DNA of 64,000 bases from contig JAJEGH010000013.1 in the NCBI GenBank assembly GCA_022819985.1, forward strand, positions 62,001 through 126,000. Direction: 5' to 3'. Origin of the DNA: Alphaproteobacteria bacterium (GTDB lineage: Bacteria > Pseudomonadota > Alphaproteobacteria > Bin65). The notes under the pieces were generated by a model. It did not search any database and was not told the origin of the DNA. It was given only the letters and a program-made list of their open reading frames with translations. The translations under genes were made by a program, and so were the position numbers. Below, piece after piece: positions 40,029-61,180 of this stretch (positions are counted from its first letter, which is position 1; every line of letters begins with the position of its first letter).

Positions 40029-40225
40029 GCAGCCATATCCCCCTCCCCTTGGGGGAGGGGCTAGGGGAGGGGTCGTCCGTTGGCGCGCCGATGTCGCCTC
40101 TGGCAAGACTCCGGCCGCCGCATACCCCTCCCCCTGACCCCCTCCCCCAAGGGGAGGGGGGAACCGTTGCTTTGTCTGTCGAAACCGACACACTGCTTTT
40201 CGCAGAGGAATCCAAGGGGGGAGGA
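40029..40225. repeat. Composite palindromic repeat element copy A (CCCCTCCCCTTGGGGGAGGGG ... CCCCTCCCCCAAGGGGAGGGG)
   Basis: Two G/C palindromes flanking a variable centre; reverse-complement homologue at 53385-53565. Confidence 0.9.
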
Positions 40226-53384: not shown

Positions 53385-53565
53385 GGATTACCCTGCGAAA
53401 AGCCGTGAATCGGACCAGACAGGCAAAGCAACACGTCCCCCCTCCCCTTGGGGGAGGGAGTCAGGGGGAGGGGTATGCGGACGTTGCTGCAGAGCGGGAT
53501 TCGGATGCCGGTGCGGCGCAAAACGACCCCTCCCCTAGCCCCTCCCCCAAGGGGAGGGGGATTCG
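53385..53565. repeat. Composite palindromic repeat element copy B, inverted relative to copy A
   Basis: ctgcgaaaag..caaagcaac..CCCCCTCCCCTTGGGGGAGGGAGTCAGGGGGAGGGGTATGCGG..ACGACCCCTCCCCTAGCCCCTCCCCCAAGGGGAGGGGG. Confidence 0.9.
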
Positions 53566-56196: not shown

Positions 56197-56982
56197 ATGA
56201 ACGCCAATCCCCTGCCGGACATGGTCCGCGGCATCGCCGAGCGGAAGATCCGCGTGATCGATCTGACCCAGACCCTGACGCCGGATTTCCCGCAGATCGA
56301 GCTGCCGCCGGAGATGGGGCAATGCTGGCCGTTCCGGCTCGAGGAGGTCTCGCGCTACGACGACCGCGGGCTTGCCGCCTACTGGAACAACTTCTCCTGC
56401 GGCGAGCATACCGGCACCCATTTCGACGCGCCGATCCACTGGGTCTCCGGCCGCAACCTGCCCAACAACAGCACCGATACCGTGCCGGTCGAGAACATGG
56501 TCGCGCCGGCCTGCGTCGTCGATTGCGTGAAGCATGTCGAGCAGAACGCCGATTTCCTGCTGTCGGCGGATTTCCTGCGCAACTGGGAGGAGGAGCACGG
56601 CAAGATCCCGCCGCGCTCCTGGGTGCTGATGCGGACCGACTGGTCGAAGCGGGCGGACCCGGAATCCTACCAGAATTTCGACGAGGAGGGGCAACACACG
56701 CCGGGCCCGGACACCGACGCCGTGCGCTTCCTGGTCGAGGAGCGCGACGTCATGGGCTTCGGCAGCGAGTGCATCGGCACCGACGCCGGCCAGGCCATGC
56801 ATCTGCGCCCGCCCTACCCGTGCCACTACTATATCCACGGCGCCGGCCGCTACGGCCTGCAATGCCTGACCAACCTCGACCTGCTGCCGCCGACCGGCAG
56901 CGTGGTCTTCACCGCGCCGCTCAAGATCAAGCAGGGCAGCGGCTCCCCGCTCCGGGTGCTCGCGCTGGTGTGGGAGGGGTAG
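56197..56982 (+). CDS. Cyclase/kynurenine formamidase-like family protein
   Basis: CGEHTGTHFDAPIHWVSGRNLPNNSTD. Confidence 0.92.
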   Translation: MNANPLPDMVRGIAERKIRVIDLTQTLTPDFPQIELPPEMGQCWPFRLEEVSRYDDRGLAAYWNNFSCGEHTGTHFDAPIHWVSGRNLPNNSTDTVPVENMVAPACVVDCVKHVEQNADFLLSADFLRNWEEEHGKIPPRSWVLMRTDWSKRADPESYQNFDEEGQHTPGPDTDAVRFLVEERDVMGFGSECIGTDAGQAMHLRPPYPCHYYIHGAGRYGLQCLTNLDLLPPTGSVVFTAPLKIKQGSGSPLRVLALVWEG

Positions 56983-57023
56983 CAGGACACCGGCACGACG
57001 ACCGGGAAGCGGGAGACCGACTC

Positions 57024-58039: not shown

Positions 58040-58093
58040 GGCACCGACGCCGGCCAAGCCATGCATCTGCGCCCGCCCTACCCGTGCCACTAT
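58040..58093 (+). pseudogene. Duplicated cyclase fragment 1 (copy of 56776-56829)
   Basis: 54-nt match with one mismatch: ggcaccgacgccggcca(a/g)gccatgcatctgcgcccgccctacccgtgccacta. Confidence 0.95.
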
Positions 58094-58452
58094 TGTGCTG
58101 CATAGCTACTTAACCCACCGTATTTGTTGACTTTATTTTTCTGATACAAAATCTGGAATCACATAGTCACCGGATTCAAACTATTTCCTGACGGCGCGTG
58201 CCTCGCCTGCTGTAGATCGGAAGGACTTTTCGGTCCTGTTCGAAGCGATGCTCCGAGCGGCATAGACAATTCGTAAGCGCTGATGCCTACCGGGCGGGTG
58301 TGTCCGGCAACATGCACCGCGCCCGGTGCACGGCGTTCGGCCCGGGCCGCCGCAATCCGCGCCGCCCACCCGCCTGACCGAATTCGCTTGAGAGCGTTGC
58401 GTCCGACCGCTATGTATCAATCAAAGGATTGGGAATTTCCCGGTCGACAGAG

Positions 58453-58485
58453 GGGTCCTGGAACTTCCGGGGCCCTTTTGTTTTT
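58453..58485 (+). terminator. Intrinsic terminator-like hairpin plus T-tract
   Basis: GGGTCCTGGAAC/TTCCGGGGCCC (G-U allowed) followed by ttttgttttt. Confidence 0.5.
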
Positions 58486-58500
58486 CTTCGCCTCGGCCCT

Positions 58501-58812
58501 TCACGGAAATTGCGCCAATCCTCTGATCTTGGGTCGGACGATCTCGAAGGCGCGGTTGGGCTGGTCCGGACGCAGGTGCGACAGCGCGATGGGCCGTGCC
58601 GTCAAGTCCGCAAGTTGCAGCCCGACGGAGTTCGCCGCCTTCGGCACGAACACCGGCTGGAAATCGAACAGGCCGAAGTCCAGCCGGCCGGGGCCCGAGG
58701 CGCCGTCGTTGGCGGCGATCCGGCGAAACTCCAGTTCAAGTTCCCGGTCCTCCTTCCTGCCGCGGCTCTCGAAGATGACATGCACCGTCCTGCCGTGCTG
58801 CCCCTGTACCTC
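58501..58812 (-). pseudogene. C-terminal half of DUF3800 protein, separated by IS110 insertion
   Basis: EVQGQHGRTVHVIFESRGRKEDRELELEFRRIAA...VGLQLADLTARPIALSHLRP. Confidence 0.85.
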
Positions 58813-58888
58813 TCACAGCGCTTCAGCCGTTTTGGGGTGCAGACGTTGCTTAGCCATTTCTCCGACCTTGATCGCAGCAGTGCTGGCT

Positions 58889-58937
58889 GGCCATTGGCTT
58901 CGCCGGAGCGCGTGGCGCGGAGGCGAAGCCAATGGCC
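58889..58937. other. 16-bp perfect stem-loop in IS110 left end (GGCCATTGGCTTCGCC / GGCGAAGCCAATGGCC)
   Basis: Arms 58889-58904 and 58922-58937 are exact reverse complements. Confidence 0.9.
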
Positions 58938-58989
58938 GGGTGCCGCTCACCTGGACTCCCTGCCATCGTGGAAGTCCTGTCCATCGCGG

Positions 58990-59140
58990 ATGGGACGGGC
59001 CAAGGGATCGAGAGCAACCGAGCGCCCCCTGCGCCATGAGCACTTGGGGAGGACCTGTGCCTCGGTCCCTGGCCGCGATGGACGCCCGGTGGGGAGTTTG
59101 CGCCTTGAGCGCCAGTACAGGGACAGGCGGGCATCGTGGC
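58990..59140 (+). ncRNA. Candidate IS110 bridge RNA region (boundaries approximate)
   Basis: Non-coding left end upstream of tnp; two stem-loops holding segments matching the element's target (59054-59063) and donor end (59088-59097). Confidence 0.55.
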
Positions 59141-59173
59141 GGTCCGTTGGCACAAGGACGCGAAGGGAATGCC

Positions 59174-60427
59174 ATGGACATGTTTGAGTATTTTGCGGGG
59201 ATCGACTGGGGTTCGGAGACCCACCAGGTCTGCGTTGTCGACAGCGCTGGCGAGGTGTCGGCCGAGCGCGCCTTCGGTCACGGCGGAGCCGGCCTGGCGG
59301 AGATGGCGGCCTGGATCCGTGCCAGGACAAACGCCGAACCGCGAGCGGTCGGGGTCGCCATCGAGATCCCGCACGGTCCCGTCGTCGAGACCATGATGGA
59401 ACGCGGCTTCACGGTCCACTCGGTCAATCCGAAGCAGCTCGACCGTTTCCGCGACCGCTTCTCGCCGGCTGGCGCCAAGGACGATCGCCGCGACGCCCGC
59501 GTGCTCGCCGATGCCCTGCGGACCGATGGACATGCGTTCCGGCGTCTGAACCCGGCGGCGCCGGAGATCGTCGAGCTGCGTGAGTGGTCGCGGATCGCCA
59601 GCGACCTGACCTGCGACAGGACCCGGCTCGTGAACCGGGCCCGCCAGCAGCTCTGGCGCTACTATCCGCAACTCCTCAAGGTCGAAAGCGATCTCACCAG
59701 GGCCTGGATCCGCGAACTCTGGTGTCTTGCGCCGACGCCCGCAAAGGCGCAGCGCGTCCGCGCCGCCACCGTCGCCAAGGTCCTGAAGCGCCATCGGGTG
59801 CGCCGGATCGATGCCGAAGCCGCGCTCCGGATCCTGCGCGAGCCGGCGGTGTCCGTCGCGCCCGGCACGACCGAGGCCGCGGTTGCCCATATCGAGGTCG
59901 TCTTCTCGCAGCTTGCCGTCATCGCGCAGCAGATCGCGAAAGCCTATGGCAGGCTCGACCGTCTGAGCGCGACGCTGTCCCGGCCGGCGGCCTCCCCGGA
60001 GGACGAGCCGGGAATAGATGCGCAGCGTGACGTGGAAATCCTGAGCTCGCTTCCCGGCGTCGGCAGGATCGTCCTCGCCACGCTGCTCGCAGAAGCACAC
60101 GATCCTCTGCGCCGGCGAGACTATCAGGCCCTGCGATGCTTGTCCGGCGTCGCTCCCGTGACCAAGCGGTCCGGCAAGTCGCTGATCGTCATCCGCCGGC
60201 TCGCGGCTCATAACCGGCTCCAGGACGCCGTCTACCACTGGGCCGGGGTGGCCATACAGCGCGACCCCGTCAGCAAAGCGAAATACGCCGCGCTGCGCGC
60301 CCGCGGGCATGGTCATGCCCGTGCGCTTCGAGGGGTCGCCGACCGTCTGCTCGGCGTCGCCTGCGCGATGCTCGAAAACCAGACCGTCTTCAATCCCGCC
60401 CGCGCGAGACAAGCCCATGCAGCGTGA
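59174..60427 (+). CDS. IS110-family transposase (DEDD/serine recombinase type)
   Basis: YFAGIDWGSETHQVCVVDSAG; SLPGVGRIVLATLLAEAHDPLRRRDYQALRCLSGVAPVTKRSGKS. Confidence 0.93.
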   Translation: MDMFEYFAGIDWGSETHQVCVVDSAGEVSAERAFGHGGAGLAEMAAWIRARTNAEPRAVGVAIEIPHGPVVETMMERGFTVHSVNPKQLDRFRDRFSPAGAKDDRRDARVLADALRTDGHAFRRLNPAAPEIVELREWSRIASDLTCDRTRLVNRARQQLWRYYPQLLKVESDLTRAWIRELWCLAPTPAKAQRVRAATVAKVLKRHRVRRIDAEAALRILREPAVSVAPGTTEAAVAHIEVVFSQLAVIAQQIAKAYGRLDRLSATLSRPAASPEDEPGIDAQRDVEILSSLPGVGRIVLATLLAEAHDPLRRRDYQALRCLSGVAPVTKRSGKSLIVIRRLAAHNRLQDAVYHWAGVAIQRDPVSKAKYAALRARGHGHARALRGVADRLLGVACAMLENQTVFNPARARQAHAA

Positions 60428-60504
60428 CGCACGAGCCACGCAAGGTGCCCGGCACGCATACTCGCGCGTGCCAGAACCCTCTTTACAAATGGTGGGGAGT
60501 CCTC

Positions 60505-60933
60505 CCCGCTCAGCATGGCGTGCAACTGCTCCATGCAGAAACGAAGCGCGACCCGGTAAGGGTTCCGCGTATCGGCATATCTCGCGCGCAGGCCGGACTT
60601 GTCGATCACGGCGGCAAAAATCTTCATGGGGGCCGCTTCGACCAGGCGGTTGAGGCCTTCATAGAACCGTTCCCGCAATTCCCGGTCGGTCAAAAGGACC
60701 GCGAACGGCCCCTTGCTCTTGCGGATGTCGTGTTCGTGCAGCACGACGGCATCGTGCCCCCAGACGCCGAACTTGAAACTCTGAACGCCGGGAACGATGC
60801 CAGCGATGTAGTCGGTCTTGCGCATGGCGCAGAAGACCAGGGCGAAGACCGGGTATTGCGGATCGATGGCGACAAGACCGTGATCGCCACTCTCGTCCGC
60901 GTAAACCACGAATTCCGAGAAATCCGACAACAC
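60505..60933 (-). pseudogene. N-terminal half of DUF3800 protein interrupted by IS110
   Basis: MLSDFSEFVVYADESGDHGLVAIDPQYPVFALVFCAM...YRVALRFCMEQLHAMLSG. Confidence 0.85.
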
Positions 60934-61061
60934 GCCTCCGCTATTCCCTTGTCACCGGCGCCGGTTGCCAACTTAATTGGCGATTGTCGATCGGCACAGC
61001 CGCCTGAAGGAGCTGCGCGCCCGCGCTCGCACCAGACCGATTACGCCCAAAGGAGTCCCTA

Positions 61062-61169
61062 ATGGTCCGCCCCGGTCTGATCGGCAGCGTGGTCTTCACC
61101 GCGCCGCTTAAGATCAAGCAGGGCAGCGGCTCGCCGCTCCGGGTGCTCGCGCTGGTGTGGGAGGGGTAG
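61062..61169 (+). pseudogene. Duplicated cyclase fragment 2: 35-aa ORF in the cyclase C-terminal frame
   Basis: MVRPGLIGSVVFTAPLKIKQGSGSPLRVLALVWEG*; 61082-61170 matches 56895-56983 with 2 mismatches; SD-like aaaggag upstream. Confidence 0.9.
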
Positions 61170-61180
61170 CGGGGCGGGCG

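What the first reader, a model, noticed from the sequence alone, without database searches (positions are those of the whole stretch)
58501..60933. IS110 insertion splits a DUF3800 gene; fusing the flanks at CCTC restores one reading frame
The N-terminal half (60933 down to 60502, ...MEQLHAMLSGE) and C-terminal half (58812 down to 58501, [E]VQGQHGRTVHVIFESRGRKEDRELELEFRR...) lie on the minus strand on either side of the IS. CCTC occurs at both junctions (58809-58812, 60501-60504). Joining them gives ...LHAMLSGE-VQGQHGRTVHVIF... in frame with no lost or added codon. This defines the insertion to within about 4 nt and shows a DUF3800 gene was intact recently.
Basis: seen in the sequence. Interest (0 to 1): 0.7.

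Follow-up and report, generated by a model that had tools for sequence, protein, structure and literature searches.

The report
Jumping element splits RNA-partnered nuclease gene

Summary
The two DUF3800 halves, the IS110 element and CCTC at both junctions are as described, and an intact gene existed recently. The exact fusion is wrong: 15 other ends of this IS in the genome, IS relatives and gap-free homologues place the IS at about 58805-60500, with duplicated CC (58803-58804, 60501-60502). Mechanism, inferred from sequence: bridge-RNA-guided insertion at CCCC|TCCCC. The left end encodes a covarying bridge-RNA structure; donor guides match the IS ends, and target guide GGGGAGG matches all nine right target sites, while relatives carry GGGGGG(G) and lie in C-runs. 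The target abounds in a genus-wide intergenic repeat. Beyond the finding: the split gene encodes an RNase H2-like fold and is one half of a compact cassette. Convergent with it lies a 67-nt two-hairpin RNA (58422-58488 +), intact here, present in 71/71 testable viral-contig loci and 12/12 plasmid/phage loci chosen by the protein, strongly covarying and unmatched in Rfam. The IS is ordinary; the RNA partner is the interesting part.

The parts
60503..60933 (-). N-terminal piece of the DUF3800 gene (GTG start at 60933; holds invariant D13-E14-S15-G16)
   Evidence: PF12686 profile 2-75; 85-86% identical to sister species
58501..58804 (-). C-terminal piece of the DUF3800 gene (holds invariant E156, D163, D210)
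   Evidence: PF12686 profile 83-147; 95% identical to G001 and G003
58805..60500 (+). IS110-group insertion sequence, 1696 bp
   Evidence: ends shared by 7 left and 8 right contig-end copies and by relatives; flanks continuous in G001/G003
58803..58804 (.). left copy of the CC core
   Evidence: CC is the core compatible with this IS and with its relatives
60501..60502 (.). right copy of the CC core
   Evidence: as above
59174..60427 (+). IS110 recombinase gene, 417 aa
   Evidence: PF01548 2e-34, PF02371 1.8e-15; IS621 8.1e-07
58974..59137 (+). predicted bridge RNA core: 5' stem-loop, target-binding loop, donor-binding loop (limits approximate)
   Evidence: 12 of 39 pairs with double changes over 10 sequences; no shuffle of 500 reached the observed covariation score
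59022..59030 (+). left target guide GCGCCCCCT
   Evidence: position in target loop; C-run matches left target
59046..59052 (+). right target guide GGGGAGG, complementary to CCTCCCC
   Evidence: 7/7 match at nine sites; relatives' guides match their own sites
59088..59097 (+). left donor guide GGTGGGGAGT, identical to the IS right terminus
   Evidence: 7 of 5000 shuffles as good
59115..59121 (+). right donor guide GTACAGG, complementary to core plus left terminus CCTGTAC
   Evidence: 16 of 5000 shuffles as good; both donor guides together 0 of 5000
58422..58488 (+). 67-nt two-hairpin RNA gene convergent with DUF3800, intact
   Evidence: model R1 74.6 bits; same RNA beside 71/71 testable viral-contig DUF3800 loci
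58370..61020 (.). DUF3800 plus RNA cassette (with the IS inside); conserved block whose neighbours differ between species
   Evidence: blastn against G001 and G003

Best explanation
An IS110-group element (1696 bp), guided by its own bridge RNA, inserted at CCCC|TCCCC inside a DUF3800 gene, leaving two open pieces and a duplicated CC core. The IS normally goes into a palindromic intergenic repeat of this genus that is rich in the same sequence; this gene carried a chance match. The broken gene is the protein half of a compact mobile cassette: a protein with an RNase H2-like fold plus a convergently encoded 67-nt two-hairpin RNA, whose gene is still intact. Shown by sequence: boundaries, target rule, guide matches, covarying structures, protein-RNA linkage. 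Inferred: that the bridge RNA directs insertion (from IS621 and ISEc21), that the protein is a nuclease that binds or processes its RNA, and that the window copy is a natural protein-minus, RNA-plus mutant.
For: IS ends in 15 further copies; gap-free homologues and continuous flanks in G001/G003; relatives' ends and targets; bridge-RNA covariation and donor-guide matches, both together 0 of 5000 shuffles; guide-target agreement at nine sites; repeat counts. Cassette: RNA beside 71/71 testable viral-contig loci, 12/12 plasmid/phage loci, covariation 0 of 500 shuffles, class-wide scan with 10 of 14 hits beside DUF3800 or a remnant. Fold: pLDDT 93.9, best structural matches RNase HII/H2/HIII, Z up to 11.6.
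Against: No experiment shows transposition, the bridge RNA, the small RNA or nuclease activity. Right-target guide matching alone is not significant in such G-rich sequence (241 of 2000 shuffles), and the guide change is a single event. Two of the 14 class-wide RNA hits have no DUF3800 beside them. The other IS copies are seen only at contig ends.
Confidence: 0.85

Rival explanations
1. One reading: the IS lies between two CCTC copies (left end at 58813) and the original protein read ...LSGE-VQGQHGR....
For: CCTC is at both junctions and the fusion is in frame.
Against: TGTACC left of the proposed end is present at all other left ends of the IS and in relatives; no homologue has the two extra residues.
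Confidence: 0.02
2. The IS recognises C-rich DNA by its protein alone; the RNA guide matches are chance in low-complexity sequence.
For: Targets and guides are low-complexity C/G, so matches come easily.
Against: Donor guides match both IS ends (0 of 5000 shuffles together); the left end has a covarying bridge-RNA fold; elements 94-95% identical in the recombinase (L053, L054) differ in the target base exactly where the guide differs.
Confidence: 0.07
3. The convergent RNA is only a conserved transcription terminator of the DUF3800 gene, not a separate RNA.
For: Its second hairpin abuts the stop codon (median gap -2.5 nt) and would terminate in both directions.
Against: The first hairpin, away from the gene, is paired in 100% of cells with double changes; TTGACA- and TATAAT-like boxes precede it in many loci; tandem copies occur; some copies stand without the gene.
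Confidence: 0.08
4. The insertion is a reversible switch: precise excision restores the gene in part of the population.
For: IS110 elements excise scarlessly as circles (PMC11208160); the fused frame is fully open.
Against: No reads or empty sites were available; the gene is also broken in sister species G004 and G005 by other means.
Confidence: 0.08

Closest known systems
IS621, ISEc21 and other IS110-group elements with bridge RNA or seekRNA (PMC11208160, PMC11187229)
   Same: DEDD recombinase with the two Pfam domains, long left non-coding end with target and donor guides, short core, multi-site insertion in a repeat; natural redirection between related elements has been reported
   Different: Recombinase is only distantly similar to IS621; core CC rather than CT; target CCCC|TCCCC; redirection here seems to rest on one guide base
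REP-targeting IS110 elements ISPa11, ISPpu9, ISPpu10 (PMC1525189)
   Same: Many copies in one palindromic intergenic repeat at one fixed position
   Different: Different repeat; no RAYT (Y1_Tnp) gene found in this genome; one copy lies inside a gene
DUF3800-associated RNAs DUF3800-I to -IX of Rfam (PMC11701678; Weinberg 2017 cited in PMC10910872)
   Same: Structured RNA linked to a DUF3800 gene
   Different: No match to any of these Rfam families at E up to 1; here a 67-nt, two-hairpin RNA convergent with the gene
BjrC68 sRNA of Bradyrhizobium (Rfam RF02353)
   Same: Two-hairpin sRNA; weak full-length matches of about 20-23 bits at several loci including the window
   Different: Far below the gathering score of 39; a link of BjrC68 to DUF3800 was not tested
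RNase HII / H2 / HIII
   Same: Predicted fold of the DUF3800 protein (Z up to 11.6, 165 residues, rmsd 3.3)
   Different: About 10% sequence identity; activity and active-site geometry not shown

Membership tests
IS110 family, IS110 group | N-terminal DEDD domain PF01548 and C-terminal PF02371 in one recombinase | tested here: met
   full-length matches well over both cut-offs
IS110 family, IS110 group | long non-coding left end upstream of the recombinase, short right end | tested here: met
   369 nt upstream, 73 nt downstream, from the boundaries
IS110 family, IS110 group | bridge RNA in the left end with target and donor guides | tested here: met
   covarying structure, donor guides, target guides; expression not tested
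IS110 family, IS110 group | circular excised form and recombination at the core | not testable with these tools
   no reads available
DUF3800 (PF12686) | Pfam profile match over the cut-off | tested here: met
   N piece 21.0 bits (equal to the cut-off of 21), C piece 28.2 bits
DUF3800-associated RNA families of Rfam (DUF3800-I to -IX) | match to one of the existing Rfam models | tested here: not met
   none at E up to 1 in four permissive scans
Rfam BjrC68 | score at or above the gathering score of 39 bits | tested here: not met
   19.6-23.4 bits
RNase H2-like fold | structural match to RNase HII/H2 | tested here: met
   Z 11.6 over 165 residues, all top 17 rows RNase H2-type
RNase H2-like fold | nuclease activity on RNA/DNA hybrids | not testable with these tools
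   needs an enzyme assay
REP/REPIN repeats made by a RAYT transposase | Y1_Tnp-family RAYT gene in the genome | tested here: not met
   no PF01797 match at E up to 0.001 (genome 97.4% complete)

The most novel reading that the evidence does not exclude
The DUF3800 subfamily hit by the IS and its convergent two-hairpin RNA form an obligate two-component system of phages, plasmids and other mobile DNA: an RNase H2-fold protein with one cognate structured RNA of a family not listed in Rfam. The RNA lacks a long variable unpaired stretch, so it is more likely a protein-bound partner, substrate or antitoxin than a guide. The window is a natural protein-minus, RNA-plus mutant, which shows that the RNA gene is tolerated without the protein.
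Probability: 0.6. Interest if true: 0.72.

Novelty: new variant of a known kind. Interest (0 to 1): 0.57.

Why it matters
The IS part corrects an insertion boundary and gives a clean natural case in which one base of a bridge-RNA guide covaries with the target base, so guide control can be tested with a single substitution. The cassette part ties a widespread, uncharacterised RNase H2-like family to one specific small RNA with complete co-occurrence in the loci tested. The role of DUF3800, an open question, becomes directly testable by co-purification and by expressing either half alone in a laboratory strain.

Tried and rejected
CCTC as the true core: rejected by other IS copies and homologues. 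CT as the core fits this IS alone but not its relatives, which have CCC at the right junction. REPIN/RAYT origin of the target repeat: no RAYT found. Folding the IS left end as a single sequence was only mildly better than shuffles (z -1.8), so the bridge RNA rests on covariation and guide matches. Right-target guide match by itself: not significant. Rfam, PADLOC, PHROGs and NCBIfam gave no name for the RNA or the DUF3800 subfamily. A sequence-profile search of the PDB gave only chance hits. The second DUF3800 of this genome (contig C49) is not a close paralogue of the split gene and has no such RNA beside it. The Weinberg 2017 paper is not held.

Full report
What was checked. The window is 62001-126000 of contig C32 of a 4.04 Mb, 51-contig genome. 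The two open minus-strand pieces, the IS between them and CCTC at both junctions are present as described. The pieces hit complementary parts of Pfam DUF3800, profile 2-75 and 83-147 of 149, so they are halves of one gene.

Where the junction really is. The same IS occurs at 15 further contig ends of this genome. All seven left ends read CCCCTGTACCTCTCACAG after different flanks, and all eight right ends read GGGGAGTCCTCCCC. TGTACCTC is therefore part of the element, not target. Joining 58804 to 60503 gives GTGCTGCCCC|TCCCCGCTC, read on the minus strand as MLSGE|GQHGRTVHV. Intact homologues in sister species G001 and G003 align over all 244 residues without a gap at 89% identity, and G038 over 241 at 70%. 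At DNA level the two flanks are continuous in G001 and G003 apart from a 2-nt overlap. IS relatives elsewhere end CCCC|TGTACC on the left and GGGGAGT|CCCCC on the right, which makes CC the shared core and 58805-60500 the element.

How the IS got there. The recombinase carries both IS110 domains and is a distant relative of IS621. The left non-coding ends of ten related elements support one structure: a 5' stem-loop, a target-binding loop and a donor-binding loop. Twelve of 39 pairs have double changes, a count reached by 1 of 500 shuffles, and no shuffle reached the observed covariation score. The donor loop holds GGTGGGGAGT, identical to the IS right terminus, and GTACAGG, complementary to core plus left terminus; both together never arose in 5000 shuffles. 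The target loop holds GGGGAGG, complementary to CCTCCCC. Nine of nine sites of this IS have T at the third position of the right target, matching the A of its guide; nine of nine sites of related elements have C there, and the relatives' guides whose sequence is held carry G. The closest relatives are 94-95% identical in the recombinase, so one guide base appears to have redirected this element. That the guide causes this is inferred from IS621 and ISEc21 (PMC11208160, PMC11187229). The right-target match alone is weak evidence in such G-rich sequence, and the guide change is a single event.

Why this gene. CCCCTCCCC is abundant in a palindromic intergenic repeat: the 21-nt form CCCCTCCCCCAAGGGGAGGGG occurs 27 times in this genome and 8 to 53 times in five of six sister species, often as inverted pairs about 100 bp apart. 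All eight other right flanks lie in C-rich sequence of this kind. The IS itself was not found in the sisters. In the DUF3800 gene, codons GGG-GAG-GGG happen to give the same sequence, whereas G001 and G003 have GAG-GAG-AGG. The gene is also damaged elsewhere in the genus: truncated next to a DDE transposase in G004 and frameshifted in G005, so it is dispensable there.

What was broken. AlphaFold2 on 24 homologues (first sequence L174, 70% identical to the G001 protein) gives a confident model, pLDDT 93.9. Its best structural matches are RNase HII, H2 and HIII, up to Z 11.6, in line with a published RNase H-fold prediction for another DUF3800 protein (PMC10910872). Invariant D13, E14, S15, G16 fall in the N-terminal piece and E156, D163, D210 in the C-terminal piece. 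The IS sits at about residue 144, between them, so neither piece should be active. Nuclease activity is inferred from the fold and has not been shown.

The partner RNA. DNA just past the DUF3800 stop codon is nearly invariant between species whose proteins differ by 30%. It encodes, on the opposite strand and pointing at the gene, a 67-nt RNA: a 7-bp hairpin followed without a gap by a second, terminator-like hairpin (folding z -4.6 to -6.2). I then fetched DUF3800 loci by protein only. Of 73 viral-contig loci, 71 have the RNA, all convergent; the other two (L245, L246) are cut off before that point. All 12 plasmid and phage loci, from Alpha- and Betaproteobacteria and from phages of Paracoccus and Pseudomonas, have it. 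The RNA's 3' end abuts the stop codon, median gap -2.5 nt in 36 loci. Covariation is strong: 12 of 20 pairs with double changes, 97% of cells paired, and no shuffle of 500 reaching the covariation score, in two sets (the second set was aligned to the model and so leans towards it, and many of its loci are closely related: 41 distinct RNA sequences). Control loci of 85 kb gave no hit. In 385 genomes of the class the model hit 14 places: ten are beside a DUF3800 or its remnant, including a divergent DUF3800 in G351 that the protein search had not found, two are at contig ends and two have none. The G351 and G063 neighbours were judged by eye from motifs. Divergent DUF3800 proteins (36% identity and below, L141 and L143-L146) have no match to the model, so the pairing belongs to this subfamily. 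Rfam gives only weak BjrC68 matches. DUF3800-associated RNAs as a class are known (PMC10910872, PMC11701678); this one is not in Rfam, but the 2017 source paper could not be read, so it could be described there.

How the cassette may work (inference). The block 58370-61020 is shared with sister species while the neighbours differ, and homologues sit on phages and plasmids, so it is mobile. A nuclease-fold protein strictly linked to a compact structured RNA without a variable guide-like stretch suggests that the protein binds or processes this RNA, as cofactor, substrate or antitoxin. The window and G063 keep the RNA without an intact protein, so the RNA gene is at least tolerated alone.

Verdict. 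The linked RNA is a new variant of the DUF3800-RNA theme and is the part worth following.

Noticed in passing
window 56776-56828 with 58040-58092, and 56892-56986 with 61079-61173: Two near-identical (96-98%) fragments of the 3' end of the putative cyclase gene 56197-56982 flank the DUF3800 cassette, as if the cassette had entered a duplicated gene end.
   Followed up: partly
window 40040-40159 and about 53439-53560: Copies of the palindromic CCCCTCCCC repeat that serves as the usual target of the IS, one as an inverted pair; no RAYT gene in the genome.
   Followed up: partly
L142 (G346:C341) 125-210 and 281-366: Two tandem copies of the convergent RNA beside one DUF3800 gene.
   Followed up: no
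L169 (G030:C3) 1501-1568 and L172 (G346:C19) 161-225: RNA model matches without a DUF3800 gene beside them.
   Followed up: no
L127 (G004:C83) about 2581 onward: In sister species G004 the same DUF3800 gene is cut short next to a DDE transposase gene.
   Followed up: partly
window 60482-60487 and 58807-58812: TTTACA in the right end and TACCTC in the left end would lie 17 nt apart in an excised circle, as a possible junction promoter for the bridge RNA; L057 has TTGACA there.
   Followed up: no
L056 2278-2475: An IS relative with a G-rich expansion of its right target guide region.
   Followed up: no
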